NCBI RefSeq assembly: GCF_003932715.1
Contig: NZ_CP020700.1
Location: 1,634,501-1,698,500, forward strand
Direction: 5' to 3'
From: Streptomyces tsukubensis
GTDB lineage: Bacteria; Actinomycetota; Actinomycetes; Streptomycetales; Streptomycetaceae
DNA length: 64,000 nt
The translations under genes were made by a program, and so were the position numbers. This document shows, piece by piece, positions 6,299 through 23,680 of this stretch. Position 1 is the stretch's first letter; every line of letters begins with the position of its first letter. Below the pieces are notes generated by a model that did not search any database, was not told the origin of the DNA, and was given only the letters and a program-made list of their open reading frames with translations.

Positions 6299-6586
6299 GT
6301 GAACCGGAACCGACGACGAGTGGTGGCCTCCGCGGCCCTGGTGTTCCTGGCCGCGGAGGCGGCCGCCGTGCAGTTGTTCCTCCCCGCGCGGCAGAGTGTC
6401 CGGCTGGGAATCTGCGGCGGGCTGACCGGCGCGACCGCGTTATGGCTCTGGGCGATGCTGCGATGTCGTCCGGCGAGCGGTGAATCCTGTACGCCCCGGC
6501 CGCCGCGGGCCCCCGGGGTGCCCGAATGCGAGGGCGGACGCGTCAGCGCCGCCCGCTCCCACGGCCGCGGTTCGCGGCTGCCCTGA
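6299..6586 (+). CDS. Small membrane protein with a TTA codon
   Basis: A 95-aa protein starting at GTG 6299 behind an AAAGAGAG ribosome site. Two hydrophobic segments (about residues 9-26 and 35-53) suggest a two-TM membrane protein, followed by a Pro/Arg/Ser-rich tail. Codon 48 (6440-6442) is TTA, the rare leucine codon read by the bldA tRNA in Streptomyces, so translation may be tied to development. I recognise no family. It is the first gene after cobC and may belong to the accessory block. Confidence 0.6.
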   Translation: MNRNRRRVVASAALVFLAAEAAAVQLFLPARQSVRLGICGGLTGATALWLWAMLRCRPASGESCTPRPPRAPGVPECEGGRVSAARSHGRGSRLP

Positions 6587-6988
6587 CGCGCCGAGCGTAC
6601 GCCCGCGCAGACCGCGCCCTCCGGTCCGGGCCGCACCGCCGTCGGAACCCGGGCCGGGCGGGCGGAATCGGCCGGAGCCCGGCGGTTTCCGGTCGTCGTG
6701 GGGCCAACGGCGCGTATTGCCGCGCCTGCTGGCCATGATCGGCTGGGGCGCGCCGGACCGTGCCCCGCCGGTGGCCGTCGGTGGCCGCCGGTGTTCCGCC
6801 CCGGTCGGTATCTGCCGGGCCGGGAACCGGGCTGCCGCCACCGCGACGCCCGGCCGACCCGCCGCCGGACCACCACGCCGGACCGGGGGACCACCGGAAC
6901 CACCGGACCGCGAGACCGCCGGACCACCACGCCGGACCGCCACAACGCCCGCCCGCCCGACTGCCCGACCGCCCGGAGGAGTGCCCCG
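6587..6988. repeat. 400-bp non-coding stretch with 23-bp direct repeats
   Basis: No gene is visible. Two identical 23-bp copies, beginning CGCCGGACCACCACG, lie at 6863-6885 and 6917-6939, 54 bp apart, inside a wider run of ACCACCGG/CCGGACC motifs. It ends at the strong GGAGGA ribosome site (6975-6980) of the next gene. It could be a regulator array, a leader, or slippage-expanded spacer. Confidence 0.6.
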
Positions 6989-8122
6989 ATGCCCACCGCT
7001 CGCGCACGTGTGAGTTCGGCCGTGATGACCCATCCCGTACGCCGTGCACAGGCCCAGGAGCTGAGCGACCGGCTCGGCCTCGGCGGACTGGCGCTGGACC
7101 CCGATCCCGGCGGTCCCCCCTCCGCCCTGCGTACGGCCCTGGTGGCCTGGGCGCGCACGGCCGAGGGCGCGACGCACCATCTGATGATTCAGGACGACGT
7201 CGCCGCGCCCGACGACTTCGTCGATCTGGTGGCGCACTGCGCGGACCGCTTCCCCGACGACGCCCTGGCGTACTACACCAACTGGCACGCCCGCAACGGC
7301 TCCGCGGCCCGGCTCGCCGCGCTGGCGGGGGCGGGCTGGGTGCGGGCGGCGCCGGAGGAGTTCACTCCGACGCTGGCGATCGTCCTGCCGATCGCGCTCG
7401 CCGACGGATTCCGGCGGTACGCGACGGGCAGCGCGGAGCGCCACGACGACGAGCTGATGGCCGCGTTCCTCCGGGGCCACGGGCGTTCCGCCCTGCTCGC
7501 GGTCCCCACGGTCACCGAGCACACGGGCACCAGCAGCATCAACGGCCATGCCTCGCAGGGGGTACGGCTCGCGGTCTGCCCCTCGGAGTCCGCCGACGCG
7601 CGTCCGCTGCTGCTGGACGGCTGGGTGCTGGAGGAGCTCGACTGGCTGCCGTACATGCGGTACGGGGAGGGCTTCATCCGGCTGCCCGGCCAGGACACCA
7701 CGCCCGATGCGCGGCACCACTTCACCTGGCGGGAGGCGCTGCCGCGGACGGGTCTTTCGGAGGCGGCGGTGCTCGGCACGCTCGGCTCGCGGGCCCCGGC
7801 GGAGGAGAAGCAGGCGCGGCAGGTGGCGGAGGCGTTCGGTCCGTCCTTCGCCGACGAGCTGTGGATCCACTGTCTGCTGCTGGGCGTGCAGGCGCGGGCC
7901 GCCGCCCGGCGGTACGCGCCGGGCGGCGGGGATCCGGCCCGCACCGCGGCGGCCGAGAAGCTGCGAGCCGCCGCCGTGTCCACGGTCGGCCCCGCGGGAC
8001 TGTCGCCGGAGCGGCGCCCGGAGGCCGGCCGGGAGCACACGGCCCTGCTGGCCGAGTACGCCTTCGCCGCCGTCAGCTCCGGGGAGCGGCTTCCGGAGCA
8101 GGCCCTCGCAGATCGAAGGTGA
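6989..8122 (+). CDS. Glycosyltransferase-like protein A (GT-A type, stand-alone)
   Basis: A 377-aa cytoplasmic protein; ATG follows GGAGGA with 8-bp spacing. The N-terminus (SSAVMTHPVRR, DPDPGGPPSALRTA, then HHLMIQDDV with QDD at residues 68-70) looks like a nucleotide-sugar-binding GT-A domain, QDD standing in for the DxD metal site. It aligns residue for residue with the N-terminal part of the protein at 21917-23680, where QDD is also at 68-70, but lacks that protein's SDR-like half. The acceptor is unknown. Its last 50 bp overlap the 3' end of the convergent acetyltransferase gene. Confidence 0.65.
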   Translation: MPTARARVSSAVMTHPVRRAQAQELSDRLGLGGLALDPDPGGPPSALRTALVAWARTAEGATHHLMIQDDVAAPDDFVDLVAHCADRFPDDALAYYTNWHARNGSAARLAALAGAGWVRAAPEEFTPTLAIVLPIALADGFRRYATGSAERHDDELMAAFLRGHGRSALLAVPTVTEHTGTSSINGHASQGVRLAVCPSESADARPLLLDGWVLEELDWLPYMRYGEGFIRLPGQDTTPDARHHFTWREALPRTGLSEAAVLGTLGSRAPAEEKQARQVAEAFGPSFADELWIHCLLLGVQARAAARRYAPGGGDPARTAAAEKLRAAAVSTVGPAGLSPERRPEAGREHTALLAEYAFAAVSSGERLPEQALADRR

Positions 8123-8849
8123 CCCAGACGGCCGGTTCCCAGTAGACCGCCCGGTCCCGGGCGCGGTCCACGCGCAGGGTGGAGAGCCCCTCGGGGAAGA
8201 CGTAGTCGCCGTCCCCGGGGAAGGCCATTCCGGTCCAGCTCTCCCACTCGGCGACCGTGCCACTGATCCTGGAGGAACGTTCCATCGCGGCGGTGACGGT
8301 GCCGCCGAGCCGTACCTGGGTCCGGATCCAGGGGTCGAAGGGTTCGCCGTCCTCCCGGGTCCAGGTGGCGTACCGCTCGATGGGCGCCAGCGGGTAGCGG
8401 TGCTTCCAGATCGGCCGCAGGGGCACGATGAGATGGTCGAACCCGTCGGCCCTGGCGAGATCGGAGAGATGGGTCAGGAGCGCCTTGGAGTGGCCCGAGC
8501 CCTGGTGCTTGGGGGCGACCTCGACCCCGAGGGCGACCAGCGCGGTCGGCTTGCGGCCGGTGTCCCGGGCGAGGTAGGCGGCGCTGATGGAGTCGTCGAG
8601 CCCCGAGCCGAGGTCCTTGGGGGTCCCGTCCCAGACGCGGGGCAGGGAGCGGCCCGCGCCGAGGATTTCGTCGCGTTCCTCGTCGTACAGCAGGAACTGG
8701 TAGTCGCGGAATTCCTCGAAGAGGCGGTTCCAGTGGGTTTGGTTGATGTCGCCGTGCAGGTTGTATTCGGGGACGACCCCGGCGAAGACCTCGGGAATTC
8801 GGTCCCACAGTTCGGGACGTTCCGAATGATTGACGAAGCGGGGACTCAT
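8073..8849 (-). CDS. GNAT family N-acetyltransferase
   Basis: A 258-aa acetyltransferase-type protein. The acetyl-CoA binding motif is visible as LGVEVAPKHQGSGHSKALL (about residues 107-125, the Q/R-x-x-G-x-G/A equivalent being QGSGHS). It is longer than a minimal GNAT; the C-terminal third (WESWTGMAFPGDGDYVFPEG) is seen in large uncharacterised actinobacterial GNAT proteins. Its ATG (8847-8849) overlaps the TGA of the upstream methyltransferase gene as ATGA, so the two form one coupled unit and probably act on the same metabolite. Confidence 0.75.
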   Translation of the reverse strand: MSPRFVNHSERPELWDRIPEVFAGVVPEYNLHGDINQTHWNRLFEEFRDYQFLLYDEERDEILGAGRSLPRVWDGTPKDLGSGLDDSISAAYLARDTGRKPTALVALGVEVAPKHQGSGHSKALLTHLSDLARADGFDHLIVPLRPIWKHRYPLAPIERYATWTREDGEPFDPWIRTQVRLGGTVTAAMERSSRISGTVAEWESWTGMAFPGDGDYVFPEGLSTLRVDRARDRAVYWEPAVWVTFDLRGPAPEAAPRS

Positions 8850-9718
8850 CCGGCGGCTCCCACGGCAGGCTTGACGGCTTCCCAGACGATGACGATCGGA
8901 ATGTCGTTCCAGGCCGCCCTGGCCGCCTCCGAGATGTGTTCCTCATATCCGCCGGGGGCGAGCCGCCCATTGAACAGCGGTTCGTAACAGGCGCGTACCG
9001 ACAGTCCGGCGGCGGTGAAGGCGCGCAGATAGTCCCCGGCCAGATGGACATGGTTGCGGACGAAGGCCAGTTCTTCGTCGCCCGCGACGAACAGACACTG
9101 GCCCTGGAGGGTGACGACGAAGGGGTGCAGATCGGAGACGATCACCCGGCCGCCGGGCCGGACCACCCGCGCCAGTTCGGCCACGGCATCGGTGAGATCG
9201 GGCATATGGGTCAGGGCCAGGGTGCTGACGGCGAGGTCGACGGAGGCGTCGTCCACCGGGAGCTTCTCCAGCCGGCCCTCGTGGAACTCGCCGTCCGGCA
9301 CCTTCCGCCGGGCGTGTTCCAGCATGTCGGGGGATTGGTCGACGCCGATGGTGCGGTAGCCGCGGGCAGCCAGGGCGGCGGTGGTGCGGCCGGTGCCGCA
9401 GGCGGCGTCGAGTGCGGTGCCGGCGGGCCCCTCCTCGAAGAGCCGGTGCACGATGGGCTCCTCGACCTCCAGATAGGAGCTGGGCAGGGAGTCGTAGATG
9501 CCCGACCAGGCGGCGTATCCGGCGCCCGCGTCCAGCTCGCCGACGGACGCTCCCCCGCCGGGCAGGTCCTCCGCGGGCCCGTTCGCGTACTTCCTGATCT
9601 CGGCCAGCCGCCGCTCCAGAAACGCCTCGTCCGTGCCGATGGCGTTACGCAGCAGCGCCAGCCCCTCGATACCGAGAACGAGTTCCCTCACCCGGAATTC
9701 CGATTTATCCGATGCCAC
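8846..9718 (-). CDS. Class I SAM-dependent methyltransferase
   Basis: A 290-aa protein with a methyltransferase type 11 core: motif I DAACGTGRTT at about residues 104-113, VDQSPDML, then PVDDASVDLAVSTLAL and VVRPGGRVIVSD. An N-terminal extension of about 95 residues precedes the core. I prefer GTG at 9718 because GAGAGG sits 6 bp upstream; the ATG at 9724 is immediately against that site. It is the first gene of a two-gene unit with the GNAT and diverges from the dimethylformamidase-like gene, with a palindromic operator between them. Confidence 0.8.
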   Translation of the reverse strand: MASDKSEFRVRELVLGIEGLALLRNAIGTDEAFLERRLAEIRKYANGPAEDLPGGGASVGELDAGAGYAAWSGIYDSLPSSYLEVEEPIVHRLFEEGPAGTALDAACGTGRTTAALAARGYRTIGVDQSPDMLEHARRKVPDGEFHEGRLEKLPVDDASVDLAVSTLALTHMPDLTDAVAELARVVRPGGRVIVSDLHPFVVTLQGQCLFVAGDEELAFVRNHVHLAGDYLRAFTAAGLSVRACYEPLFNGRLAPGGYEEHISEAARAAWNDIPIVIVWEAVKPAVGAAG

Positions 9719-9878
9719 GAACATCCTCTCAGCCGGGGTTTCCCTACCGAAACCCACTACTCTTCTCCGATACCGAACGGTAGTTTTCCGCCCGCTTACC
9801 CGCATGCTTACCGATGTGCTTCCCCACTGCTTCCGGGCATGCTTCTGCGCGCTACCCAAGCCCTTCCTCCCGCACTCT

Positions 9879-9890
9879 TGAAACGTTTCA
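9879..9890. promoter_or_regulatory. LacI-type operator palindrome
   Basis: TGAAACGTTTCA is a perfect 12-bp palindrome with the central CG typical of LacI/GalR family operators. It lies between the divergent methyltransferase (start 9718) and dimethylformamidase-like (start 10012) genes, so one repressor could control both. No LacI gene is in the window. Confidence 0.65.
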
Positions 9891-10011
9891 GTTGGCCGGA
9901 ATCAACTGGCGAAAGTCCGGTCTTCCCCAGGTGTGTTGTTGCAGCGGGCACCTTCTCTTAGCATCGGGCGCCGTCGGCCCGCGAGTGACGGGCCTGTTCC
10001 GGGGAGGGACC

Positions 10012-11484
10012 GTGATTGAGGGGTATGCGGGGCGGGAGAGCGTGACGGCCGGTGAGGCACTCGCCCTCCATGTGTCGACCGACGCGCCCGCGTTCCGGGT
10101 ACGGCTGTACCGGCTGGGCCGGGAGCTGGAGTTCATGGCCGAGTCGGGTCCGTACCCCGGGATACGGACCGATCCGCCGCCCCATCCGGAGGGGATCCCC
10201 GGGGTGGCATCGCCCGCCGTGGACTGGGGCTTCCCGGAGTACCGGATCGACGTGCCCGGGGAGTGGCCGACGGGCATCTATCTGGCGCACCTGGTCGAAG
10301 AGGGGCAGCGGGAGACGGTGCCGCTGCTCGGCGACGGGGACATCGAGGGCTTCGCCCGGGAGTTCTTCGTGGTGCGGCCCCGGCGCCCGGGCGGCCGGGG
10401 CCGGATCCTGTACAAGAAGTCGACGTTCACCCGGCACGCCTACAACCGGGCGGACCGCGAGGGCGTCCCGCGGGCCGGGAGCCTGTACGACAACCCGGTG
10501 TACGGCACGGGCGGCGACGGCCGGCCGCGTGGTCACCGGCTGAGCATGCGGCGTCCGGGCGGGGTGATCGACCTGGCCTGGTGGGACGCTCCTTTCATCG
10601 GCTGGCTGGAGCGGTGCGGTTACGCCGTCGAGTACTGCACGGACCTCGACCTCCACCGGGATCCCGGGCTGCTGGCCCCGTACGACCTGCTGCTGAGCGT
10701 CGGTCACGACGAGTACTGGAGCACGGCGATGCGGGAGCACACGGACGCCCATCTGCGCGCGGGCGGGAACGTCGCCTTCCTCAGCGCCAACACCTGCTGG
10801 TGGCGGGTGCACCTCACGGACGACGACACCGGGCTCGTATCCGACACGGACCACCACGTCGACGGGGTGTTCCCGCATCTGCCGTCGACGGATCTGTGGT
10901 GGGCGGCCCCGCCGGACGGCGTCGGCACCCCGGAGAACGTCCTGACCGGGGTCAGTTTCCGCAACGGCGGGATGTGGCCGGGCGAGTGGCCGGGCGACCG
11001 TCCGCGGGTCGGCTACCGGGTCCAGCACGCCGGGCACTGGGTGTTCGAGGGCACCGGACTGCGGGACGGTTCCGACGGTGGTCCCGCGGACCGTCTGGGC
11101 GCCGGGACCCCGCTGATCGGCTACGAGTGCGACGGTGCGGCCTTCGCGTACGACGAACGGGGCGTCGCCCGGGCGACCGGCGCCGACGGTACGCCCGCCT
11201 CTTTTCTGATCCTCGGCCTGTACGAGCTGTCGCCCGTCAGCGAGGACGTGACCACCATGAAGTGGGGCCACTGGAACTGTGTGGTGCGCGAGCCGGAGCG
11301 GACCGGCCCGCGCGCCGCGACCATGGGCGTGCACACGGTCGAGGGCGGCGGGACCGTCTTCACCGCCGGGACCACCGACTGGCCGGTGATCTGCGGACGG
11401 GAGGAGGATCCGGGCGTGGTACGGGTGACCCGCAACGTCCTGGACCGGCTGTCCCGGCGGGCCGGAGCCCCGGCCGGGCCCTGA
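10012..11484 (+). CDS. N,N-dimethylformamidase large-subunit-like protein
   Basis: A 490-aa protein of the N,N-dimethylformamidase beta-subunit C-terminal-domain family. The N-terminal 120 residues form a beta-rich domain (GYAGRESVTAGEALALHVST) and the rest carries the family core, including LSVGHDEYWS (about residue 229) and LIGYECD. Characterised members hydrolyse dimethylformamide with a small subunit that is missing here; most actinobacterial homologues have unknown substrates, so the reaction is not settled. GTG at 10012 follows GGGGAGGG. It has no signal peptide. The operator at 9879-9890 lies upstream. Confidence 0.75.
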   Translation: MIEGYAGRESVTAGEALALHVSTDAPAFRVRLYRLGRELEFMAESGPYPGIRTDPPPHPEGIPGVASPAVDWGFPEYRIDVPGEWPTGIYLAHLVEEGQRETVPLLGDGDIEGFAREFFVVRPRRPGGRGRILYKKSTFTRHAYNRADREGVPRAGSLYDNPVYGTGGDGRPRGHRLSMRRPGGVIDLAWWDAPFIGWLERCGYAVEYCTDLDLHRDPGLLAPYDLLLSVGHDEYWSTAMREHTDAHLRAGGNVAFLSANTCWWRVHLTDDDTGLVSDTDHHVDGVFPHLPSTDLWWAAPPDGVGTPENVLTGVSFRNGGMWPGEWPGDRPRVGYRVQHAGHWVFEGTGLRDGSDGGPADRLGAGTPLIGYECDGAAFAYDERGVARATGADGTPASFLILGLYELSPVSEDVTTMKWGHWNCVVREPERTGPRAATMGVHTVEGGGTVFTAGTTDWPVICGREEDPGVVRVTRNVLDRLSRRAGAPAGP

Positions 11485-11487
11485 GCC

Positions 11488-11531
11488 CGGTCGCCGTACC
11501 GGACCGTGATCGGTCGCCGTACCGGACCGTG
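11488..11531. repeat. Tandem 21-bp direct repeat downstream of the dimethylformamidase-like gene
   Basis: A 21-bp unit beginning CGGTCGCCGTACCGG occurs at 11488-11508 and again at 11511-11531 without mismatch, just after the stop at 11484. Confidence 0.75.
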
Positions 11532-11542
11532 GGCGTGGCCTG

Positions 11543-11576: not shown

Positions 11577-11592
11577 TGTCTCGCGGCCCGCC

Positions 11593-12354
11593 CTACGGTG
11601 TCGGATCCGTCAGCGTGCGCAGGGTGGTGATCCGGGCCGCGCCCCGGGGCAGGGGCGGAGCGGTGCCCTCCACCGCCCGGTCGGGGCGGTGGAGGTGCGC
11701 GGCCCGCATGCCGAGGGCCAGCGGCCCCAGCACATCGGGCTCCCACATGTCCCCCACGAAGAGCGTGCGGCCGGGGGTGGTGCCGCAGGCTTCGAGGACG
11801 GCCCGGTAGATCAGGGGGTGCGGTTTGCGCACCCCCGCCCGGGCCGAGCTGACACTGGAGTCGACCAGTCCGCCGAGGCCCGCGGCGGTCACGGCCCGGT
11901 CGAGGTCCCAGAACCAGTTGGAGCAGACGACGATCCGCAGACCCCGTCCGCGCAGGCGCGCCAGGGAGTCGAGGACGTCGGGGAACAGCTCCAGGGCCAG
12001 GGTCTTCCCGGCCCGGTCCAGTTCGACGGCCACCTCCCCGGCCACATCGGCGGGTACGCCCCGGTCCAGGGCGTGCCGCCGCAGCCGGTCCACCTCCCAG
12101 GCGCGGTAGGCCGCTTCGGACACCGAGTGTTCCCGGTGGTCCTCGCCGTCCGCGATCCCGGTCGACCACATGTCGCCCCAGCGGTCGGCGGCGGCGTGGA
12201 GGCCCCGGCGGCGCAGCACCGCGTCGTGGGTGGGCGGCAGGGGCGGCACCATCCGGACGAGCGTGCCGTAGAAGTCGAGGGCGACGGCGTCGACTCCGTC
12301 CAGGAGGGAGCCGTGGGCGACGGCGCCGGGCCCCTCCGCCCGTGCGGCACCCAC
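11593..12354 (-). CDS. HAD superfamily hydrolase
   Basis: A 253-aa phosphatase-type protein. The nucleophile motif is ALDFYGTLV (Asp about 27), motif II is VVCSNW, the lysine is in RAGVRKPHP, and motif IV is FVGDMWEPDVLG, so all four HAD motifs are present. The helical cap fits subclass I (haloacid dehalogenase/phosphoglycolate phosphatase type). The GTG start at 12354 lies 4 bp after the stop of the amidinotransferase gene, so they form one operon. A sugar-phosphate or aminocyclitol-phosphate phosphatase role would suit this neighbourhood, but that is inference. Confidence 0.8.
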   Translation of the reverse strand: MGAARAEGPGAVAHGSLLDGVDAVALDFYGTLVRMVPPLPPTHDAVLRRRGLHAAADRWGDMWSTGIADGEDHREHSVSEAAYRAWEVDRLRRHALDRGVPADVAGEVAVELDRAGKTLALELFPDVLDSLARLRGRGLRIVVCSNWFWDLDRAVTAAGLGGLVDSSVSSARAGVRKPHPLIYRAVLEACGTTPGRTLFVGDMWEPDVLGPLALGMRAAHLHRPDRAVEGTAPPLPRGAARITTLRTLTDPTP

Positions 12355-13902: not shown

Positions 13903-15204
13903 ATGCGACGATCCCGTTCTCGCACCGCCGTCCGTACCTCCGGCGCACTGGTGCTCGCCCTCGCCGCAACGGCCTGCGACTCGGGCGGCAAGGGCGGTTC
14001 CGCAGGCGGTGGTGGATCGGACGAACTGACCGTGTGGCTGACCATCGACGCCAGGGAGAGCTGGCCCGGTCTCATCACGGCGACCAACAAGCGCTTCGCG
14101 GAGCGATATCCGGGCGTTCGGGTCGATGTGCAGTACCAGCAGTGGACCAGCAAGAATCAGAAGATTGATGCCGCATTGGCCGGCCGGGACGTACCAGATG
14201 TGGTCGAGATGGGCAACAGCGAGACCACCAATTACATCGTCAATGGCGCATTCAGTCCGGTTGACGAGCAGAAATTCGATCATTCCAAGGACTGGCTTCC
14301 GGCTCTTGCGGACGCGTGTCGACTGAACGGGAAGACTTACTGTGTGCCCTACTACGCGGGCGCCCGCGTAGGCATCTACCGGACAGATCTCCTCCGGGAG
14401 ATAGGTGTCGCAAAGCCACCGTCGACCTATCCGGAGCTGCTGTCGGTTCTGGACAAAATGAAGGCCAGATTCGGCCGGACCGACAAGAACTTCTCGGCCT
14501 TCCATATGCCGGGGCGCTACTGGAGCGCCGCGATGGCCTATGTCAAGGACGCAGGGGGCGAGATGGCCGTCCAGCAGGACGGGCGCTGGCGCGGTGCGCT
14601 GGCTTCCCCCGAGTCCCTCAAGGGCCTCACCGAGTGGAAGAAGCTGCTGGACACCTACTACACGGGTGACCGTTCCAAGGACAACAGCGACGAACCCGGT
14701 GTCGTGGGCCAGGGCAAGACCGGCATGTTCTACGGCAACACCTGGGAGGCCAACGCCGCGGCCGATCCGAAGGCGGGCGGCAATCCGGCGATGAAGGGCA
14801 AGTTCGCCACCTTCCCCTTCCCCGGCCCCTCGGGCAAGCTCATGCCGCCCTTCCTGGGCGGCTCCACCCTGGCCGTTCCCGTCAAGTCCCGCAGTCAGGA
14901 CATGGCCCGGGAGTGGATCCGGCTCTTCACCGACCGGGAGTCGCAGCGCACCCTGATCAAGGCCGAGACGCTGCCCAACAACACGATCCAGCTGCGGGAC
15001 GTCCCCGCCGACGGCATCAACGGGGCCGCCGCGATCTCCGCCGCCCGGGGCTGGGTCACCCCGCTGGCGCCCGGCTGGGGAGCCGTGGAGAAGTCCAACG
15101 TCCTGCCGGAGATGCTCCAGGCGATCGCGACCGACAAGAAGTCCGTCGAGCAGGCGGCCAAGGACGCCGACCGGGCGATCGACGCGGTGATCAACGACAA
15201 CTGA
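13903..15204 (+). CDS. Sugar ABC transporter substrate-binding lipoprotein
   Basis: A 433-aa family 1 extracellular solute-binding protein. The signal peptide ends in lipobox LAATAC (lipid Cys about residue 25), followed by a Gly/Ser linker. The body shows family features: DVPDVVEMGNSE near the hinge, GKTYCVPYYAGARVGIYR and a C-terminal helix-rich domain. It should be tethered to the outer face of the membrane and deliver an oligosaccharide or modified sugar to the two permeases downstream. Its third-position GC is lower in the first 600 bp (for example GGCATTCAGTCCGGTTGAC) than in neighbours, which may indicate acquisition. Confidence 0.9.
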   Translation: MRRSRSRTAVRTSGALVLALAATACDSGGKGGSAGGGGSDELTVWLTIDARESWPGLITATNKRFAERYPGVRVDVQYQQWTSKNQKIDAALAGRDVPDVVEMGNSETTNYIVNGAFSPVDEQKFDHSKDWLPALADACRLNGKTYCVPYYAGARVGIYRTDLLREIGVAKPPSTYPELLSVLDKMKARFGRTDKNFSAFHMPGRYWSAAMAYVKDAGGEMAVQQDGRWRGALASPESLKGLTEWKKLLDTYYTGDRSKDNSDEPGVVGQGKTGMFYGNTWEANAAADPKAGGNPAMKGKFATFPFPGPSGKLMPPFLGGSTLAVPVKSRSQDMAREWIRLFTDRESQRTLIKAETLPNNTIQLRDVPADGINGAAAISAARGWVTPLAPGWGAVEKSNVLPEMLQAIATDKKSVEQAAKDADRAIDAVINDN

Positions 15205-15372: not shown

Positions 15373-16377
15373 ATGGCGACCGCAGATCCACCCCATCCAA
15401 CGCGTCCGGCCGGGACGCCGGTACGCCCCTCCCCCGGTCGGGGCCGCCGGACGGCCCGTCCGCCCGCCGCACGCTCCTGGCGGACGCTGCGCCGCCGGGC
15501 GGTGCCGTACGCACTGATCGCGCCGACCGTCCTCGCGCTCGCCGCGGTCCTCGGCTACCCCCTGGTCGAACTGGTACTGCTGTCCTTCCAGGACATGACC
15601 CGGCGGGAGCTGTTCGCCGGCACCGAACCGCCGTGGGTCGGTCTCGACCAGTACCGTACGGTCCTCTCCGACCGCTTCTTCTGGGTGGTCGTCGGCCGTA
15701 CCTCCCTCTTCACCCTGGTGTGCACGGTCGCGACGATGGGCACGGCGATGCTGGTGGCCCTGCTGCTCCGGCGGGTCGCGCCCTGGGTGCGGCTGCTGAC
15801 GGGCGCCGTCCTGGTCGCGGTCTGGGCGATGCCGGTGATGGTCGCGGCGGCGGTGTTCCGCTGGCTGGTGGACCCCGAGTTCGGGGTCGCCAACTGGCTG
15901 CTCGGGCTGGTGCCCGGAGTCTCCTTCGAACGGCACAACTGGTTCGAGGACCCCTGGCAGGGGTTCGCGGTGATCGCCGCCGTGGTGATCTGGGGTTCTC
16001 TGCCCTTTGCCACGATCACCCTGCAGGCGGCGCTCACCCAGGTGCCGCCGGAGCTGGAGGAGGCCGCCAGGGTCGACGGCGCCGAGGGGACGAAGGTCTT
16101 CCGCCACATCGTCTTCCCGGTCATCCGGCCCGCGTTCGTCATGGTGACGTCGCTGACCGCGATCTGGACCTTCGGCGTCTTCAACCAGATCTGGCTGATG
16201 CGCTCGGGCACCCCGGAGAAGGAGTACTACCTCCTCGGGGTCCACTCCTTCATCGAGTCCTTCGCCGTCAACCGCTACAGCACCGGGGCGGCGATCGCCG
16301 TGATCACCGTACTGCTGCTGCTCGCCGGTGCCGTGGTCTACGTACGCCAGCTGGTCAGAATGGGAGAGGCCGAGTGA
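15373..16377 (+). CDS. Sugar ABC transporter permease (MalF type)
   Basis: A 334-aa inner-membrane permease with about six TM segments after a Pro/Arg-rich cytoplasmic N-terminus. The EAA loop that contacts the ATPase is present (EEAARVDGAEGTKVFRHIVF). ATG at 15373 follows GAGGAG. The stop overlaps the GTG of the second permease as GTGA. No ATP-binding subunit is encoded nearby, which is usual for Streptomyces sugar importers that share the MsiK ATPase. Confidence 0.9.
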   Translation: MATADPPHPTRPAGTPVRPSPGRGRRTARPPAARSWRTLRRRAVPYALIAPTVLALAAVLGYPLVELVLLSFQDMTRRELFAGTEPPWVGLDQYRTVLSDRFFWVVVGRTSLFTLVCTVATMGTAMLVALLLRRVAPWVRLLTGAVLVAVWAMPVMVAAAVFRWLVDPEFGVANWLLGLVPGVSFERHNWFEDPWQGFAVIAAVVIWGSLPFATITLQAALTQVPPELEEAARVDGAEGTKVFRHIVFPVIRPAFVMVTSLTAIWTFGVFNQIWLMRSGTPEKEYYLLGVHSFIESFAVNRYSTGAAIAVITVLLLLAGAVVYVRQLVRMGEAE

Positions 16378-17315
16378 GCACCGACGGAACCGTCAACACG
16401 GCCACGGCACCGGGTGCCCGGCGCCCGGACCCCGAACCGGCGGCGGCAGAGCCACGCACCGTACGGCCCGAGCAGCGGGCCGGGCAGCGGCGGCGGCGCA
16501 GACGGTCCCGGCTCGCCAACACCCTGGCGCTGCTGTTCTGCGCCGCCATGGCCTTCCCGGTGTACTGGATGCTGCTGACCGCGCTCCGCCCCGCGCACGA
16601 GATCCGCCGCAACCCGCCGCGGCTCTGGCCGAGCGGGCTGACGCTGGAGAACTTCCGCCGGGCCATGGAGTCGGAGACCTTCTGGTCCAGTGTCCGGGCC
16701 AGCGCCCTGGTGGGCGTCGGGACGGTACTGGTCTCCCTGGTCATCGGGGTACTGGCGGCGTACGCGGTGGCCCGGTACGCGTTCCTGGGGCGCCGGGTCT
16801 TCGTCCTGGCGATCCTCTCCATCCAGATGATCCCGCTCGCCGGACTGATCATCCCGCTGTATCTGCTGCTCAGCGACGCCGGTCTGACGGACAGTCTGAC
16901 CGGGGTCGTCCTCACCTATCTGGTCTTCATGCTGCCGTTCACCGTCTGGCTGCTGCGCGGCTTCGTGGTCGCCGTCCCGGCCGAACTGGAGGAGGCGGCC
17001 ATGGTCGACGGGTGTACCAGGGCCGGGGCGTTCCGCCGGGTGCTGCTGCCGCTGCTGGCCCCCGGACTCGTGGCGACCTCGGTCTACTCCCTGGTGCAGG
17101 CGTGGAACGAGTACGTCCTCGCCTATGTGCTGCTCTCCAGCGACGAGAAGCAGACCGTCTCCATCTGGCTGGTGTCCTTCCAGACCACCTTCGGCACCGA
17201 CTACGGCGGGCTGATGGCGGGCGCCACCCTGACGGCCCTGCCCGTCGTGGTCTTCTTCCTGATCGTGCAGCGGCGGGTGGCGAACGGACTGGCTGCGGGC
17301 GCCGTCAAGGGATGA
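16374..17315 (+). CDS. Sugar ABC transporter permease (MalG type)
   Basis: A 313-aa partner permease with a 45-residue charged N-terminus, about six TM segments and an EAA loop (EEAAMVDGCTRAGAFRRVLL). It is coupled to the first permease by a 4-bp overlap. Together with the lipoprotein it completes the membrane part of a CUT1-type importer. Confidence 0.9.
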   Translation: MSTDGTVNTATAPGARRPDPEPAAAEPRTVRPEQRAGQRRRRRRSRLANTLALLFCAAMAFPVYWMLLTALRPAHEIRRNPPRLWPSGLTLENFRRAMESETFWSSVRASALVGVGTVLVSLVIGVLAAYAVARYAFLGRRVFVLAILSIQMIPLAGLIIPLYLLLSDAGLTDSLTGVVLTYLVFMLPFTVWLLRGFVVAVPAELEEAAMVDGCTRAGAFRRVLLPLLAPGLVATSVYSLVQAWNEYVLAYVLLSSDEKQTVSIWLVSFQTTFGTDYGGLMAGATLTALPVVVFFLIVQRRVANGLAAGAVKG

Positions 17316-17683: not shown

Positions 17684-18781
17684 GTGACGTCCGACCGTCT
17701 TGACCTGGTTTCCAAGCTGTACCAGCCGTCCGGCTGGCCCCGAGTCCTCGAAGTCGCCTCCGGACAGCGCTCCACCGCCCCCCTGGTGGTGGACCTCGAC
17801 CCGACCACGTTCTGCGATCTGGCCTGCCCCGAGTGCATCAGCGGAAAGCTGCTGAACCAGGGCCGCTTCACCCCCGAGCGGCTCGCCGAACTCGCCGCTG
17901 AGCTGGTGGAGATGTCCGTCCGCGGGGTCGTCCTCATCGGCGGCGGCGAACCGCTGGCCCATCGCGGCACCCGCCAGGTGCTGCGCACCCTCGGCGAGGC
18001 GGGCATCGCCATCGGCGTGGTCACCAACGGCACCATGATCCCGCAGAACCTCGACGAACTGGCCCGGTACGCCTCCTGGGTGCGGGTGTCGATGGACTCC
18101 GGGAGCGCCGACACATACGGCGTGTTCCGCCCCGACCGCAAGGGGCGGAGCGTCTTCGACAAGGTGATCGCCAATATGCGGCTGCTGGCCGCGGAGAAGC
18201 GGGGTGCACTGGGATATTCGTTCCTGATCATGACGCGACGGCAGCCGGACGGCTCCTTCGTCAGCAACCACCACGAGGTGCTGCAGGCGGCGCGGCTCGC
18301 CAAGGACATCGGCTGCGACTACTTCGAGTCCAAGGCGATGTTCGACGACGGGCACCACGTCATCCAGATGCCCGAGGAGACGCTCGCCTCCGTCGTCGAG
18401 CAGCTGCACGAGGCGGAGAAGCTGGCGGACGACACCTTCGAGATCATCGACTCCTCGACCCTGACGACCCTGCGCAACCGGGTGGGCCCGGTGCAGCCGA
18501 AGGACTACCACCGCTGCCCGGTGGCGGAGCTGCGGACACTGATCACCCCTTCGGGCGTGTACGTCTGCTCCTACCACCGGGGCAATCCGCTGGCGAAGAT
18601 CGGTGACGCGGTGACCGAGAAGCTGCCGGACATCTGGGCCTCGGCGGACCGCGGGATCGTCGACCCCAGCCGGGACTGCCGCTTCCACTGCGCCCGCCAC
18701 CGCTCCAACCTCGAACTCCAGAAGATCGGGGCCGGAGCGGCGGCGGCGGAACCGGCCGAGGACTACGACCCGTTCATCTGA
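17684..18781 (+). CDS. Radical SAM enzyme with SPASM/twitch-like C-terminus
   Basis: A 365-aa radical SAM enzyme. The 4Fe-4S cluster motif is CDLACPEC (C44, C48, C51), followed by IGGGEPL for SAM binding and VTNGTM. The C-terminal part has further cysteines in YHRCPVAEL, YVCSYHRG and CRFHCARHR, enough for an auxiliary cluster. Related enzymes oxidise or epimerise aminocyclitols and sugars or modify peptides; no precursor peptide gene is nearby, so a small-molecule substrate is likelier. GTG 17684 follows CAGGAGA. Its 3' end overlaps the convergent kinase gene by 19 bp. Confidence 0.88.
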   Translation: MTSDRLDLVSKLYQPSGWPRVLEVASGQRSTAPLVVDLDPTTFCDLACPECISGKLLNQGRFTPERLAELAAELVEMSVRGVVLIGGGEPLAHRGTRQVLRTLGEAGIAIGVVTNGTMIPQNLDELARYASWVRVSMDSGSADTYGVFRPDRKGRSVFDKVIANMRLLAAEKRGALGYSFLIMTRRQPDGSFVSNHHEVLQAARLAKDIGCDYFESKAMFDDGHHVIQMPEETLASVVEQLHEAEKLADDTFEIIDSSTLTTLRNRVGPVQPKDYHRCPVAELRTLITPSGVYVCSYHRGNPLAKIGDAVTEKLPDIWASADRGIVDPSRDCRFHCARHRSNLELQKIGAGAAAAEPAEDYDPFI

Positions 18782-19890
18782 TCCGGTACGGGCCGGAGGC
18801 GGCTGTTGCGCGCCTCCGGCACCGCACCGGCCGACGCCCGGGTGGGTATCACCCGGGCGTCGGGGTGTTCCCCGCGCAGGGCTTCACGGAGCGCGGCGGC
18901 GATACCGTCGGCGTCGGCCGTGCGGCAGACGCCCACCAGGGCGCCGCCGCCGCCCGCGCCGCTGAGCTTCAGCGTCAGTCCCGTGGACCGCTGCGCCAGC
19001 GCGCGCAAGGTCTCCAGCAGGGGCGTCGACATTTGCTGGTGGTCCCGCATGGTGATGTGCGCCCGGTCCATGGCCTCGGCCAGTGCGCCGAGTTCCCCGG
19101 AGCGGATCGCGGACCAGGCATCGGCGGAGGCGGCGTCGGCCTCCTTGAGATAGGCCGCCAGGGCGGGATCGCCGTCCCTGAGCTGGGCCCGTACGGTCCG
19201 GATATGGTCGGAGGTGTCCTTGCGGGACGCGGAGTCCAGGACCAGGACCGCCCAGTCGGCGGGGAAGACGGCCCGGTCCGCGACGGCGGGCAGTCCGGTG
19301 GGCCGGCCTTCGAGCAGCAGCGCCCCGCCCTCGATGACCGCGAGCTGGTCCATCCCGCCGCCGTTGAAGTGCGCGAACTCGAATTCGTAGGCCCATTGCG
19401 CGAGCGTGTCCACCGGGACGGTGTCCGGTGCGGGGACACAGGCTCCGGTGTAGGCCCGGAACAGGCCGACGATCAGGGCGGTCGACGAGGAGAGCCCGCT
19501 GGCGGAGGGCGCCTCGCTGCGCACCTCGACGGCGGGCGGGCGCGGGGGCAGTCCGGCGAGCCGGGCCCGCAGGAAGTCCCACACCTGATCGGCCCAGTCG
19601 CCGGTGGGCGCCGGGGGCGGTCCGGGGACCGTGGTGACGACGGTGGGCAGGTCGAGGGCGACACTGACGCCGCGTCCGCCCAGCCAGTCGAGGTCCTCGC
19701 CGGACAGGCAGGCCCGGCAGGGCACCGCCGCCCGGACCCCGAGCCGTAAGACGGCGTCCTGGTGGCGGTCGCCGCCGGACCGGGCCGGCTCCGGGACCGC
19801 ACCGGGCGCGGACGCGGGCCGGCCGGCCCCGTTGTGCTCTCCCGGGCCTTCCGGCACCGGGGACGTGCGGGCTTCCGTGGATCCGGTCAC
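18763..19890 (-). CDS. GHMP family sugar kinase (galactokinase-like)
   Basis: A 375-aa small-molecule kinase. Motif 1 is atypical (VPCRACLSGEDLDWLGG), motif 2 is PSASGLSSSTALIVG and motif 3 is LKLSGAGGGGALVG, so the ATP site is intact. GGGMDQLAVIEGG matches the catalytic-Asp region of galactokinases. It most likely phosphorylates a sugar at C1. A Pro/Gly-rich leader of about 45 residues precedes motif 1. GTG 19890 overlaps the NUDIX stop as GTGA; it is the third gene of the SDR-NUDIX-kinase operon. Confidence 0.82.
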   Translation of the reverse strand: MTGSTEARTSPVPEGPGEHNGAGRPASAPGAVPEPARSGGDRHQDAVLRLGVRAAVPCRACLSGEDLDWLGGRGVSVALDLPTVVTTVPGPPPAPTGDWADQVWDFLRARLAGLPPRPPAVEVRSEAPSASGLSSSTALIVGLFRAYTGACVPAPDTVPVDTLAQWAYEFEFAHFNGGGMDQLAVIEGGALLLEGRPTGLPAVADRAVFPADWAVLVLDSASRKDTSDHIRTVRAQLRDGDPALAAYLKEADAASADAWSAIRSGELGALAEAMDRAHITMRDHQQMSTPLLETLRALAQRSTGLTLKLSGAGGGGALVGVCRTADADGIAAALREALRGEHPDARVIPTRASAGAVPEARNSRLRPVPDQMNGS

Positions 19891-20381
19891 CGGGCCTGGA
19901 ACCTTCCCGTTGCGTTGAACTCGCGGTACATCTCCAGCACCGCGGCGGTGGGCTTGTGCAGCGGCGCGGGCGGGTCGTCCGGGCGGTGCCAGGCGATCCG
20001 CACCACTTCGCCGGGGTCGGGAGACGGCTCCCCGGCCCAGGTCCGGGCGGCGAAGAGCAGGGCGAAGCAGTGCATCACATCGCCGTTGGGGTAGGTGAAG
20101 GTGTGCAGCCCGGGGTCGGAGAGGGAGCCGAAGGGCACCAGGTCCTCCCGGCGCACCAGCAGACCGGTCTCCTCCTCCAGTTCGGTGACGGCCGTTCCGG
20201 CGAAGTCGCTGCCCTCCTCGCAGGCTCCGGCCGGGATCTCCCACTGCCCGTTGTCGGCGCGCTGCTGGAACAGCACCCGGCCGTCGGGGTCTTCGAGGAG
20301 GATCTGGGCCCCGGGCATCAGCAGCAGTCTGCTGCCGACGGACTGCCGCAGTTTCCAGACGTACGATCCGACGTAACCCAT
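19887..20381 (-). CDS. NUDIX hydrolase with a degenerate Nudix box
   Basis: A 164-aa protein. The Nudix box ends in TELEEETGL, keeping the metal-binding glutamates, but two canonical positions differ (Glu to Ser after the first Gly spacer, Arg to Thr before the first Glu). Likely substrates are nucleoside diphosphates linked to a sugar or similar. I prefer ATG 20381 with AAGGGA upstream (product MGYVGSYVWKL); GTG 20426, which overlaps the SDR stop as GTGA, would add 15 residues. It is the middle gene of the operon. Confidence 0.8.
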   Translation of the reverse strand: MGYVGSYVWKLRQSVGSRLLLMPGAQILLEDPDGRVLFQQRADNGQWEIPAGACEEGSDFAGTAVTELEEETGLLVRREDLVPFGSLSDPGLHTFTYPNGDVMHCFALLFAARTWAGEPSPDPGEVVRIAWHRPDDPPAPLHKPTAAVLEMYREFNATGRFQAR

Positions 20382-20422
20382 CCGTGCCGTTCCCTTTCGT
20401 TCACCGGCTGTGGCCGCCGGTG

Positions 20423-21613
20423 TCACGCCTGCTCCGTCAGCCAGGCGGGCACCGCGTCCGGCGTGGCGTTGAGCCAGCGCACATACCGGTCGACACCCTC
20501 GCGCACGGTGATGCCCGGGGTCCAGCGCAGCAGTTCGCGCAGCCGGTCCGTGGCGGCGTAGCCGCCGAGCGGGTCGTCGGCGGGGCGCGGGGTGGTGAGG
20601 AAACGGGACCCGGGGTAGTAGGGGGCGATCAGTTCGGCGACGTCGCGCACGGAGGTGGCGATGCCGGAGCCGACGTTGACGGTCTCGCCGACCACTCCGT
20701 CCTCGACCAGGGCGAGCGCGGTGGCGGCGGCGATGTCGTCGACGTGGACGAGGTCACGGACCTGGAGGCCGCCGCCGTTGAGCCGCATCGGCAGTCCGGC
20801 CCTGGCGTGCATGGCGAGCCACGCGACCATCCAGGAGTGGCTGCCCGGCTTGGGGGTCTGCGGATCGCCGTAGACGGAGAAGTAGCGCAGGATCGCGTAG
20901 TCGGTGCCGGTCCCGGCGAGCAGCAGCCGGGTCTGGTGCTCGCCCCAGAGCTTGGAGTTGGCGTAGACCGACAGCGGGTGGGGCGCCTGGTCCTCGGTGA
21001 AGCGCTGGGGGCCGTCGAGCGGGGAGGTGCCGTTGCCGTACACCGCCGCCGAGGAGACGAAGACCATCCGGCGCACCCGGGCCGTGGCGGCTTCCTCCAG
21101 GACGGTCTCGGTTCCGGCGACATTGGCCTCGAAGGCGATGTCGGGGCGGCGGGTGCAGGCGGCGACGTCCGCGAAGGCGGCGGCGTGCACCAGCAGATCG
21201 GCGCCGTCCATGACCCTGCGTACGGCCTCGCGGTCGCCGACGTCTCCGACGACGAGTTCGGCGCCGGAGCGCCGGGTGCCGAAGCGTTCGTGGGTGGCGT
21301 CCGGGTAGGCGTCCATCCGGTCCAGGACGACGACCTCCGCCTCGGCGGCGAGGAGCAGGGCGGTGAGCCTGCTGCCGACCAGACCGCCGCCGCCGGTGAC
21401 GACGATCCGGGAGCCCCTGAGCTTCTCCAGCCGCGCCGCGACCGAATGGTCCGCCGCGCTTTCCGGGGCATGTGCCGGTGCGTGTGCCGTTTTCTGTTCC
21501 GCCGAGTCCGTCGTCACCGCGTTCTTCCCGTCGTTCCGTTCGCCGTTCCGTCCGTTGTGCTGCTGGTCGCTCTGGTCCGTCGCAGCGTTTGCGCCAGCGT
21601 TCGTGCCCGGCAT
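20423..21613 (-). CDS. NAD-dependent epimerase/dehydratase (extended SDR)
   Basis: A 396-aa protein. After about 65 low-complexity residues the extended SDR starts at RIVVTGGGGLVGSRL; VHAAAF, FVSSAAVYG and the catalytic YANSK follow, then RYFSVYGD and RDLVHVDDI, as in UDP-glucose 4-epimerase and NDP-hexose dehydratase relatives. It should act on a nucleotide sugar. The ATG at 21613 has AAGGAG at 5-6 bp. It starts the operon with the NUDIX and GHMP kinase genes and diverges from the glycosyltransferase/SDR fusion. Confidence 0.88.
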   Translation of the reverse strand: MPGTNAGANAATDQSDQQHNGRNGERNDGKNAVTTDSAEQKTAHAPAHAPESAADHSVAARLEKLRGSRIVVTGGGGLVGSRLTALLLAAEAEVVVLDRMDAYPDATHERFGTRRSGAELVVGDVGDREAVRRVMDGADLLVHAAAFADVAACTRRPDIAFEANVAGTETVLEEAATARVRRMVFVSSAAVYGNGTSPLDGPQRFTEDQAPHPLSVYANSKLWGEHQTRLLLAGTGTDYAILRYFSVYGDPQTPKPGSHSWMVAWLAMHARAGLPMRLNGGGLQVRDLVHVDDIAAATALALVEDGVVGETVNVGSGIATSVRDVAELIAPYYPGSRFLTTPRPADDPLGGYAATDRLRELLRWTPGITVREGVDRYVRWLNATPDAVPAWLTEQA

Positions 21614-21916
21614 GCAGACTCCTTACGGCCGATACGGCCGCTCCGTTGGTGAATCGTGTACAGCAGCCAGCATGACGATCTTCAACGGCCGGAACCAGGG
21701 CGCCTTTTTGGCACTCTTGCGGACCGGGAAAGGCTCGCCGTAGTGTCCGGATTCGTATGCGGCCCACCGGATTCCCCCACCGCTATTCGGCCAGCGCGGC
21801 GGAAAACCGTTGCGAAAAGGGCGGAGGAGTCGGGGAAACGGCGAACCGCCCGAAGGAGCGCGGGGAACCGGAGGGGCCCGGCGCGGGCCGGCCCGGGAAC
21901 GGAGCACGGAGGATCT
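21614..21916. promoter_or_regulatory. Divergent promoter region
   Basis: A 303-bp gap between the SDR and the fusion gene without a convincing ORF. TACGGCCG is repeated in tandem at 21624-21631 and 21633-21640 next to the SDR ribosome site. The stretch 21700-21840 is less GC-rich than its surroundings and probably holds both promoters. Confidence 0.4.
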
Positions 21917-23680
21917 GTGACGTCTTATCGTCTGAGCGGCGCGGTGATGACCCATCCGAAGCGGCTCGCGGCCGCCGAGCAACTGGCCGGCGCCGCGCCT
22001 CCGGGGGCGCTGCAGGTCGTCATGGACCCCGACCCGGGCGGCCGCCCCTCGGTGCTGCGGACGGCGCTCGCCGCCTGGTCGGCCATCGGGGAGGACGCCA
22101 CCCACCACCTGGTGGTCCAGGACGACATGCTGCTCTCCGACTCCTTCTTCGAGCGGGCCGGGGCGGCGGTGGAGGCGATGCCGCACGCGGCCCTCGCGCT
22201 CTTCGCCCTCTGGGATTCGCGCAACGGCGCGGCGGTGCGCCTGGGGGCACTGGCCGGGGCCCGCTGGGTGACCGCGGTCAACGAGTACTTCCCGTGTGTC
22301 GCGATCGTGCTGCCGCGCGATGCGGCGGCCGGGTTCGTGGATTACGGCAGGGCCCGGCTCGACGCCTGGCCGGACGACATCCTGATGTACCGCTTTATGC
22401 GCGACAACGGCATCCCGGGCCATGTGTCGGTGCCGAGTCTGGTGGAGCACGAGGACCACGGCAGTATTTCCGGCAACGCGTTCCGGGGCCCGCGCCGTTC
22501 GGTCTGTTTTCTTCCGGACGACCGCCCGGCGGACGAGAGCGTCCGATTGCCGGGGTTGCGGGTGGCGCCGTTCTTCAAGAACGGTGTCGCCCAGTGCGCG
22601 GTCCGGCTTGAGGAACCGGGTCCCGAGCGGTGGCTGCATCTTGAATGCGAGTCTTTTCTGGAGGGCTCGGGAATTCGTGGAGAAAGACTGGATTCGGCCA
22701 TGCTGGGATTGACCGAAGTGACGGACCGGGAGGCGGTACGGGGTACCTGGCTCACGGCGTTCACGCTCGGCTTCGTCCATCGGCGCGACGGCCGGGGGGA
22801 CGCCCCCGATCCGGCGCGGGATCCGGTGCTGGCGGAGGCGCTGGCGACGATCGGCCCCGGCGGTATCAGCCACCGCCGGTCCGAGGAGCAGATCGCGGAG
22901 GTACGGGACGAACTCGCGGCGGTCGCCGAGGCGGGGCTGGCCGCGGGCCTGGCGGCCGGGGAGCGCAGGCCCTCCCGGCGTCCGGCGGCGGGTCCGGCGC
23001 GCGCGGTCGCGGTGGGGCTGGCCGGCGGGGCGAGCCCGCTGGGCGAGCACATCGCCCGGGGCCTCAGGGACAAGGGCTTCACGGTCGCCGCGGCCGACCC
23101 GGGTGCGGAGGGCATGCTGCGGGGGCTGGACGCGCTGGTCGATCTGCGTCCGCTGCACCGGGCGGGCGGCCGGACCCCGGCGGGGGTCGCGCTGCGGATC
23201 CTCGACCGGGCGACGGGCGCGGTCCGCACCGACCACACCCTCTACACGGGCGATCTGTACGGGCCGGGCTGCCCGCGCGATTCGGTGATCGGCGCCCTGG
23301 TGTGGGACGCGGTGCGCTATCAGCCGCTGAAGGTGGCCGAGCCGCCGGAGGCCGGTCCGCGTCCGCTGCATCCGCTGCATACGGCGGATCTGGCGGATGC
23401 GCTGGCCCATGCGGTGGTCTCGCCCCCGGCGGAGCGGGCCGTCCTTCTGCCGGTGGGTGAGCCGCTGCCCGTGAGGGACGTGGCGGAGCTGGTACGGGAG
23501 GCGGTCAGGCCGGTTCCGGTGGAGGGCGCCCCGGCTTCCCGGCGCCGGGGCGCGGGCCCCGGGCCCGTACCGCAGGCGCCGCGGCTGCCGGGGTGGAAGC
23601 CGGTCCGGGAACTGCGCCTGGGGCTGCACGGGTTCGCGCAGTGGCTGGCGTACGAGGGCATCCGCTACGCACCGGTCTGA
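21917..23680 (+). CDS. Glycosyltransferase-like protein B fused to an SDR-like domain
   Basis: A 587-aa protein; GTG 21917 follows GGAGGA closely. Residues 1-340 are homologous to protein A at 6989 (GAVMTHPKR, DPDPGGRPSVLRTA, HHLVVQDDM with QDD at 68-70). Residues about 360-587 (VAVGLAGGASPLGEHIARGL onward) resemble an NAD-dependent epimerase fold with a weak Gly motif and no clear catalytic triad, so it may bind rather than convert a nucleotide sugar. This coupling of a transferase-like and an epimerase-like domain, with a stand-alone copy of the first domain 15 kb away, suggests one pathway bounded by the pair. Confidence 0.65.
   Translation: MTSYRLSGAVMTHPKRLAAAEQLAGAAPPGALQVVMDPDPGGRPSVLRTALAAWSAIGEDATHHLVVQDDMLLSDSFFERAGAAVEAMPHAALALFALWDSRNGAAVRLGALAGARWVTAVNEYFPCVAIVLPRDAAAGFVDYGRARLDAWPDDILMYRFMRDNGIPGHVSVPSLVEHEDHGSISGNAFRGPRRSVCFLPDDRPADESVRLPGLRVAPFFKNGVAQCAVRLEEPGPERWLHLECESFLEGSGIRGERLDSAMLGLTEVTDREAVRGTWLTAFTLGFVHRRDGRGDAPDPARDPVLAEALATIGPGGISHRRSEEQIAEVRDELAAVAEAGLAAGLAAGERRPSRRPAAGPARAVAVGLAGGASPLGEHIARGLRDKGFTVAAADPGAEGMLRGLDALVDLRPLHRAGGRTPAGVALRILDRATGAVRTDHTLYTGDLYGPGCPRDSVIGALVWDAVRYQPLKVAEPPEAGPRPLHPLHTADLADALAHAVVSPPAERAVLLPVGEPLPVRDVAELVREAVRPVPVEGAPASRRRGAGPGPVPQAPRLPGWKPVRELRLGLHGFAQWLAYEGIRYAPV

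What the first reader, a model, noticed from the sequence alone, without database searches (positions are those of the whole stretch)
6299..23680. 17-kb accessory block that looks like an undescribed guanidino-sugar or cyclitol pathway
Seen: between an intact cobC and an SCO1860-type LAETG gene lie an arginine amidinotransferase, HAD hydrolase, GHMP kinase, NUDIX, extended SDR, radical SAM/SPASM enzyme, methyltransferase, GNAT, dimethylformamidase-like protein, two GT-A-like proteins and a CUT1 sugar importer. Known: AGAT-type enzymes, GHMP kinases and radical SAM dehydrogenases recur in aminocyclitol and nucleoside antibiotic routes; in S. coelicolor, from memory, the flanking genes are near neighbours. 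Inference: this is an inserted pathway that builds or remodels a guanidinylated sugar-like molecule. No PKS, NRPS, inositol-phosphate synthase or nucleotidyltransferase is present, so the precursor may be imported by the ABC system or come from elsewhere.
Basis: partly seen in the sequence, partly recalled or inferred. Interest (0 to 1): 0.85.

Follow-up and report, generated by a model that had tools for sequence, protein, structure and literature searches.

The report
Probable allosamidin (chitinase inhibitor) gene cluster
A compact set of 14 genes inserted beside vitamin B12 genes in a Streptomyces chromosome holds enzyme types that fit the known building blocks of allosamidin, a chitin-like chitinase inhibitor, so the long-missing genes for that compound may now be directly testable.

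Summary
It is a 14-gene unit (7025-23680). All 7 close rSAM orthologs in a 345-genome family sample, from two genera, sit in the full set; the 8 distant ones do not.

Best reading: an allosamidin-type pathway. Labelling work (review PMC6269690, passages) requires an Arg amidino donor, Met-derived N,N-dimethyl, GlcN-derived N-acetylallosamine twice and a GlcN-derived cyclopentane via a 6-aldehyde. The block offers an AGAT-family amidinotransferase, a methyltransferase, an SDR nearest in PDB to UDP-GlcNAc C4-epimerase, two paralogous glycosyltransferase-like proteins, and a radical SAM enzyme nearest by sequence to the sugar enzyme BlsE (by fold, peptide maturases tie with DesII).

Shown: content, conservation, insertion, enzyme families. 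Inferred: product and every step. No producer genome or metabolite was examined. The searches made listed no paper on these genes, but most subscription journals are not held. Roles of GNAT, GHMP kinase, NUDIX and importer are guesses.

The parts
7025..8122 (+). GTa1, glycosyltransferase-like protein (365 aa)
   Evidence: PHROG 854 glucosyltransferase, 16 of 16 aligned N-domains; paralog of GTa2 N-domain, 35% identical; not found next to the cluster in CT34 (L011), G191, G609 or MAG L010
8073..8849 (-). GNAT acetyltransferase (258 aa)
   Evidence: Pfam PF00583; no convincing PDB relative (best E 0.053)
8846..9724 (-). SAM methyltransferase (292 aa)
   Evidence: Pfam Methyltransf_11; best PDB hit 3bxo N,N-dimethyltransferase, E 8.1e-10, practically tied with unannotated 1ve3; sugar N,N-dimethyltransferases further down the list
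10012..11484 (+). DMFA2_C (N,N-dimethylformamidase-like) protein (490 aa)
   Evidence: Pfam PF20254, E 4.7e-63; PDB N-acetyl-(R)-beta-phenylalanine acylase, E 1.1e-11
11593..12354 (-). HAD-family hydrolase, probable phosphatase (253 aa)
   Evidence: Pfam PF00702
12359..13477 (-). Arginine amidinotransferase, AGAT family (372 aa)
   Evidence: PDB AGAT E 5.3e-68, SxtG 1.9e-67, HsvA 1.1e-62, StrB1-type 3e-51; FDAAD and GGGLHC motifs in 14 of 14 orthologs, H.LHID in 13 of 14
13903..15204 (+). CUT1 sugar solute-binding protein (433 aa)
   Evidence: Pfam SBP_bac_8 and SBP_bac_1; PDB best trehalose/maltose-binding protein, GacH also listed
15373..16377 (+). ABC permease 1
   Evidence: Pfam BPD_transp_1
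16374..17315 (+). ABC permease 2 (start codon approximate)
   Evidence: Pfam BPD_transp_1
17684..18781 (+). Radical SAM enzyme with a cysteine-rich C-terminal (SPASM/twitch-like) region (365 aa)
18763..19890 (-). GHMP-family small-molecule kinase
   Evidence: Pfam GHMP_kinases_N and _C; best NCBIfam mevalonate kinase, far below its cut-off; weak PDB hits to galactokinase and heptose kinases
19887..20378 (-). NUDIX hydrolase (163 aa)
   Evidence: Pfam PF00293, E 1.4e-19
20423..21442 (-). Extended SDR, nucleotide-sugar epimerase type (339 aa)
   Evidence: Pfam Epimerase; two best PDB entries 6wjb and 6wj9, E 1e-34 to 1e-33, 6wj9 titled UDP-GlcNAc C4-epimerase
21947..23680 (+). GTa2, glycosyltransferase-like N-domain fused to an epimerase-fold C-domain (577 aa)
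   Evidence: PHROG 854; C-domain SDR fold and PF01370 in 29 of 34 members of the alignment, not in the window copy
4976..6148 (+). Left neighbour cobC (host gene, not part of the pathway)
   Evidence: beside the SCO1860-type gene in 11 of 17 relatives' loci
23847..24806 (-). Right neighbour, SCO1860-type LAETG surface protein (host gene, not part of the pathway)

Best explanation
The block is a complete or nearly complete biosynthetic gene cluster for allosamidin or a very close relative, a pseudo-trisaccharide of two N-acetyl-D-allosamines and allosamizoline. Proposed working, all steps inferred: (1) the SDR turns UDP-GlcNAc into UDP-N-acetylallosamine (C3 inversion through a keto intermediate). 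(2) The amidinotransferase moves the amidino group of arginine to the 2-amino group of a glucosamine (phosphate). (3) The radical SAM enzyme oxidises C6 to the aldehyde, or closes the ring itself, so that C5 joins C1 and a cyclopentane forms; kinase, HAD and NUDIX add and remove phosphate. (4) The DMFA-like amidohydrolase closes the aminooxazoline with loss of ammonia. (5) GTa1 and GTa2 add two N-acetylallosamines. (6) The methyltransferase dimethylates the exocyclic nitrogen last. (7) The importer takes chitin oligosaccharides or the product back up. GNAT has no assigned role.
For: Labelling results quoted in a review (PMC6269690, passages seen): allosamine and cyclitol from D-glucosamine, (CH3)2N-C from Met methyl and the Arg guanidino group, cyclopentane likely through a 6-aldehyde, producers are Streptomyces. 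Matching families here: AGAT-type amidinotransferase with conserved motifs; methyltransferase with an N,N-dimethyltransferase as best PDB hit; SDR nearest UDP-GlcNAc C4-epimerase; two GT paralogs; radical SAM enzyme nearest BlsE by sequence, with invariant cysteines for the radical cluster plus four or more C-terminal ones. The unit is closed: 14 genes, and no gene outside GTa1..GTa2 is shared with more than 3 of the other 16 loci compared. All 7 rSAM orthologs of 75% identity or more in the family sample sit in the full 14-gene set, as do the AMDT orthologs of 82% or more in the genus sample (11 of 392 genomes: 8 with 14 genes, G191 and G609 with 13, G073 seen on two contigs with 10). No PKS or NRPS gene is in the block.
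Confidence: 0.66

Rival explanations
1. A guanidino or aminooxazoline pseudo-oligosaccharide of the same chemical class but a different, undescribed compound (for example a glycosidase inhibitor with other sugars).
For: Enzyme families fix the class better than the compound; GNAT, GHMP kinase and NUDIX are unexplained by allosamidin; copies without GTa1 and the reduced MAG set suggest product variation.
Against: One amidinotransferase, one methyltransferase, one UDP-HexNAc-type epimerase and two GTs are a close numerical match to allosamidin.
Confidence: 0.22
2. Trehazolin-like pathway: an aminocyclopentitol-aminooxazoline joined to one glucose.
For: Trehazolin has a fused 2-aminooxazoline on a cyclopentitol and a glucose moiety (PMC7411730, passages), so amidinotransferase and carbocyclisation would be shared.
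Against: No N-methyl is needed, yet the methyltransferase is present in every one of the clusters read that was not cut short of it, MAG L010 included; only one sugar; the reported producer is a Micromonospora.
Confidence: 0.03
3. A radical-SAM-modified ribosomal peptide cluster in which the rSAM enzyme acts on a precursor peptide.
For: SkfB and SuiB, peptide maturases, are among the nearest folds.
Against: By sequence the nearest solved enzyme and the nearest NCBIfam model are BlsE; the partner genes are sugar enzymes. Small precursor ORFs were not searched for.
Confidence: 0.03
4. Streptomycin-like guanidino-aminocyclitol (six-membered ring) or a blasticidin-like guanidino nucleoside.
For: StrB1-type amidinotransferase is homologous; rSAM nearest BlsE.
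Against: No PLP aminotransferase or inositol dehydrogenase family was found among the 14 genes; the amidinotransferase scores higher with AGAT, SxtG and HsvA than with the inosamine-phosphate enzyme.
Confidence: 0.06

Closest known systems
Allosamidin biosynthesis (known from labelling; no gene paper appeared in the searches made)
   Same: Predicted enzyme inventory fits the labelling scheme quoted in PMC6269690: Arg amidino donor, methylation, GlcN-derived sugars, a likely redox step for the 6-aldehyde
   Different: No direct link yet; GNAT, GHMP kinase, NUDIX and importer are extra
Pactamycin cluster (ptm)
   Different: ptm has PKS genes, which are absent here; homology of the rSAM enzyme here to PtmC was not tested
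Streptomycin StrB1 and related amidinotransferases (AGAT, SxtG, HsvA)
   Same: Same amidinotransferase superfamily
   Different: Partner genes differ; substrate unknown here
Acarbose GacH importer
   Same: A CUT1 binding protein belonging to a pseudo-oligosaccharide pathway (pathway role recalled); GacH is among the PDB hits of the SBP
   Different: Not the closest hit (trehalose/maltose-binding protein is); ligand unknown
BlsE and DesII radical SAM sugar enzymes
   Same: Nearest by sequence (BlsE) and among the nearest by fold
   Different: 19-20% identity or less over the fold alignments; reaction here unknown

Membership tests
Allosamidin biosynthesis | Amidino group taken from L-arginine | tested here: met
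   AGAT-family enzyme with conserved catalytic motifs (catalytic roles recalled). Family level only; acceptor untested
Allosamidin biosynthesis | N,N-dimethylation from methionine | tested here: inconclusive
   One SAM methyltransferase in the set; best PDB hit N,N-dimethyltransferase, practically tied with an unannotated protein
Allosamidin biosynthesis | Conversion of GlcNAc to N-acetylallosamine (C3 inversion) | tested here: inconclusive
   SDR nearest UDP-GlcNAc C4-epimerase; C3 activity cannot be read from sequence
Allosamidin biosynthesis | Two glycosyl transfers | tested here: inconclusive
   Two GT paralogs in the window, but GTa1 was not found beside L010, L011, G191 and G609 copies
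Allosamidin biosynthesis | Cyclopentane formed from glucosamine, likely via a 6-aldehyde | tested here: inconclusive
   Radical SAM enzyme with radical and auxiliary cysteines, BlsE/DesII/SkfB/BtrN-like fold
Allosamidin biosynthesis | Compound made by a strain that carries the genes | not testable with these tools
   No metabolite data; no genome of a named producer was looked up
Trehazolin-like pathway | No N-methylation and a single glucose | tested here: not met
   Methyltransferase kept also in MAG L010 and in all five full clusters; two GTs in the window. The presence of the gene does not prove methylation of the product
Pactamycin | PKS genes | tested here: not met
   None among the 14 genes
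Streptomycin-type guanidino cyclitol | Inositol dehydrogenase and PLP aminotransferase with the amidinotransferase (recalled definition) | tested here: not met
   No such Pfam family among the 14 genes
RiPP cluster with rSAM maturase | Precursor peptide gene | not tested
   Short ORFs were not examined

The most novel reading that the evidence does not exclude
The radical SAM enzyme here founds a family of radical carbocyclases that turn amino sugars into aminocyclopentitols. The allosamidin-type cluster is one branch; a sister rSAM branch (52-56% identical), which sits in its own conserved sugar cluster with a GT2/PIG-L deacetylase fusion, a flavin monooxygenase-like protein and, in the copy examined by Pfam, GH3 and GH1 glycosidases, would make a second, undescribed class of glycosidase inhibitors.
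Probability: 0.3. Interest if true: 0.9.

Novelty: new variant of a known kind. Interest (0 to 1): 0.76.

Why it matters
[quoted passage not shown] Its precursors were found by labelling, but the searches here listed no paper on its genes. A defined 14-gene unit, present in cultured named species, would make the cyclopentane and aminooxazoline chemistry directly testable, would let producers be found by sequence, and could reveal a radical SAM route to carbocyclic sugars.

Tried and rejected
DasR-like palindrome (pattern from memory) in the window: 2 matches at up to 2 mismatches against 1.01 expected, so no support for chitin-linked control. NCBIfam: no family above its cut-off for the 10 proteins tried (6 of them gave only weak hits, 4 or more none; the amidinotransferase got none). 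Pfam on GTa N-domains: 0 of 16; PDB profile of the same: best E 0.0077, a 2-phospho-L-lactate guanylyltransferase, so a nucleotidyltransferase role of the GTa proteins is not fully excluded. GNAT: no useful PDB relative. The 396-genome phylum sample gave the rSAM only in the own genome and G133, and the 345-genome class sample gave the amidinotransferase at E up to 1e-130 only in the own genome, so frequency outside the family is poorly known. Relationship of the rSAM enzyme to PtmC could not be tested, no ptm sequence being at hand. Transposase or att-like scar: only an 11-base repeat between the two junctions, not convincing. Plasmid collection: 1 record with the rSAM gene, Streptomyces sp. 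BHT-5-2.
Full report
OBSERVATION. The window lies in an 8.02-Mb, 3-contig assembly. The closest named relative of GTa2 is a Streptomyces tsukubensis protein, 96% identical, so the host is probably close to that species.

INSERTION. Of 18 same-genus relatives searched besides the own genome, 17 have an SCO1860-type homolog (a second, weaker copy in G009 was left out of the count). In 11 of these 17 loci cobC is found within the roughly 1.5 kb fetched on that side, at 49-527 bp between hit ends; in none of the 17 loci was a block gene seen. In the other 6 cobC was not found in the stretch held, and at least some of these stretches end at a contig end, so they say little. DNA similarity to empty sites ends about 45 bases after the cobC stop and resumes around the SCO1860 stop; similarity to other clusters starts about 50 bases before GTa1. 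The repeat search made between the junctions found nothing better than 11 bases.

CO-CONSERVATION. A scan of named genomes with the amidinotransferase gave 16 loci. Eight Streptomyces loci at 85-91% identity carry the set: 6 with all 14 genes (L004, L005, L007, L008, L009, L012; L008 rearranged and with GTa2 cut by the end of the stretch), L011 without GTa1, L006 cut by its short contig after 9 genes. The actinobacterial MAG L010 (77%) has 7 of the 14. The other 7 loci (49.9-59% identity, proteobacterial and planctomycete MAGs) have only the amidinotransferase, apart from one weak SDR hit. In a genus sample of 392 genomes, 29 have an amidinotransferase at E up to 1e-80: 11 at 82% or more including the own genome, 3 at 63%, 15 at 42-46%. 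Of the 11, eight show all 14 genes (G000, G696, G175, G094, G075, G187, G650, G692), G191 and G609 show 13 (no GTa1; G609 is frame-shifted in several genes), and G073 shows 10 on two broken contigs. In a separate genus sample of 199 the rSAM enzyme occurs at 77-100% identity in 7 genomes, all of them among those 11; the next is 55%. In a family sample of 345 genomes there are 15 rSAM matches at E up to 1e-100: 7 at 75% or more, all in the full 14-gene set and from two genera, and 8 at 52-62% identity, none of which has an amidinotransferase or other core gene beside it (three of the 8 show only weak permease hits and one a short 40% methyltransferase hit). Named and unnamed collections overlap (for example contig lengths show G650 to be S. 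rhizoryzae and G1160 to be NRRL WC-3742), so these counts must not be added. Outside GTa1..GTa2 no gene is shared with more than 3 of the other 16 loci compared. The set is therefore a closed, portable unit.

INTERPRETATION. [quoted passage not shown] Each of these requirements has one plausible gene family here, and the GT number matches. Glucoallosamidins, demethyl and other forms exist (PMC6691824, passages), which would fit a loose epimerase or transferase and late methylation; late methylation is also suggested by the title of a conversion study in that reference list. All step assignments are inference. I put allosamidin or a close relative at 0.66.

AGAINST. No product is shown; fold neighbours include peptide maturases at equal score; C3 epimerisation is not shown; three genes and the importer are unexplained; some copies lack GTa1; no chitin-regulator site was found.

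LITERATURE. Searches (3 papers; 0; 2; 0; 5; 17; 551 for two of three terms, 10 listed, none with allosamidin; 23, 15 listed; 1) listed no paper that describes allosamidin genes by its title. I saw passages of PMC6269690, PMC6691824, PMC13402214, PMC3441724 and PMC7411730 and only listings of the rest. Most subscription journals are not held, so a published cluster cannot be excluded.

Noticed in passing
L097, L137, L138, L139, L140, L141, L142: A sister rSAM (52-56% identical) sits in its own recurring cluster: FMO-like protein (6 of the 8 low-identity loci), GT2/PIG-L fusion (5 of 8), a large protein that is GH3 in L141 (7 of 8), and in some a CUT1 importer, LacI/ROK-type regulators and GH1. 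Possibly another amino-sugar-derived glycosidase inhibitor.
   Followed up: partly
L136 9625-14564: A 62% identical rSAM next to a SAM synthetase, a nucleoside-phosphorylase-family protein and a patatin-like protein, with a phage-integrase-family gene on the other side.
   Followed up: no
L010 8815-20198: Reduced relative of the cluster in an actinobacterial MAG, with a MocA-SDR fusion and an aldo/keto reductase in place of separate SDR, HAD, NUDIX and importer.
   Followed up: partly
L094, L095, L096: Amidinotransferases about 63% identical without the other cluster genes; L096 has a second, 30% identical amidinotransferase about 3 kb away.
   Followed up: no
L098, L099, L100, L101: Another amidinotransferase group (42-46% identical) in 15 of 392 genomes plus a second copy in G688; in L100 it lies beside a 2233-aa reading frame that looks like a peptide synthetase by its first residues.
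   Followed up: no
L013-L019: Amidinotransferases 50-59% identical in proteobacterial and planctomycete MAGs without the other cluster genes.
   Followed up: no
window 22999-23680 (GTa2 C-domain): The epimerase-fold C-domain of GTa2 is degenerate in the window copy but still scores as PF01370 in 29 of 34 aligned members.
   Followed up: partly
window 25130-27130: Amidohydrolase-family gene next to the SCO1860-type gene, also found there in most relatives' loci; host gene, not part of the block.
   Followed up: no
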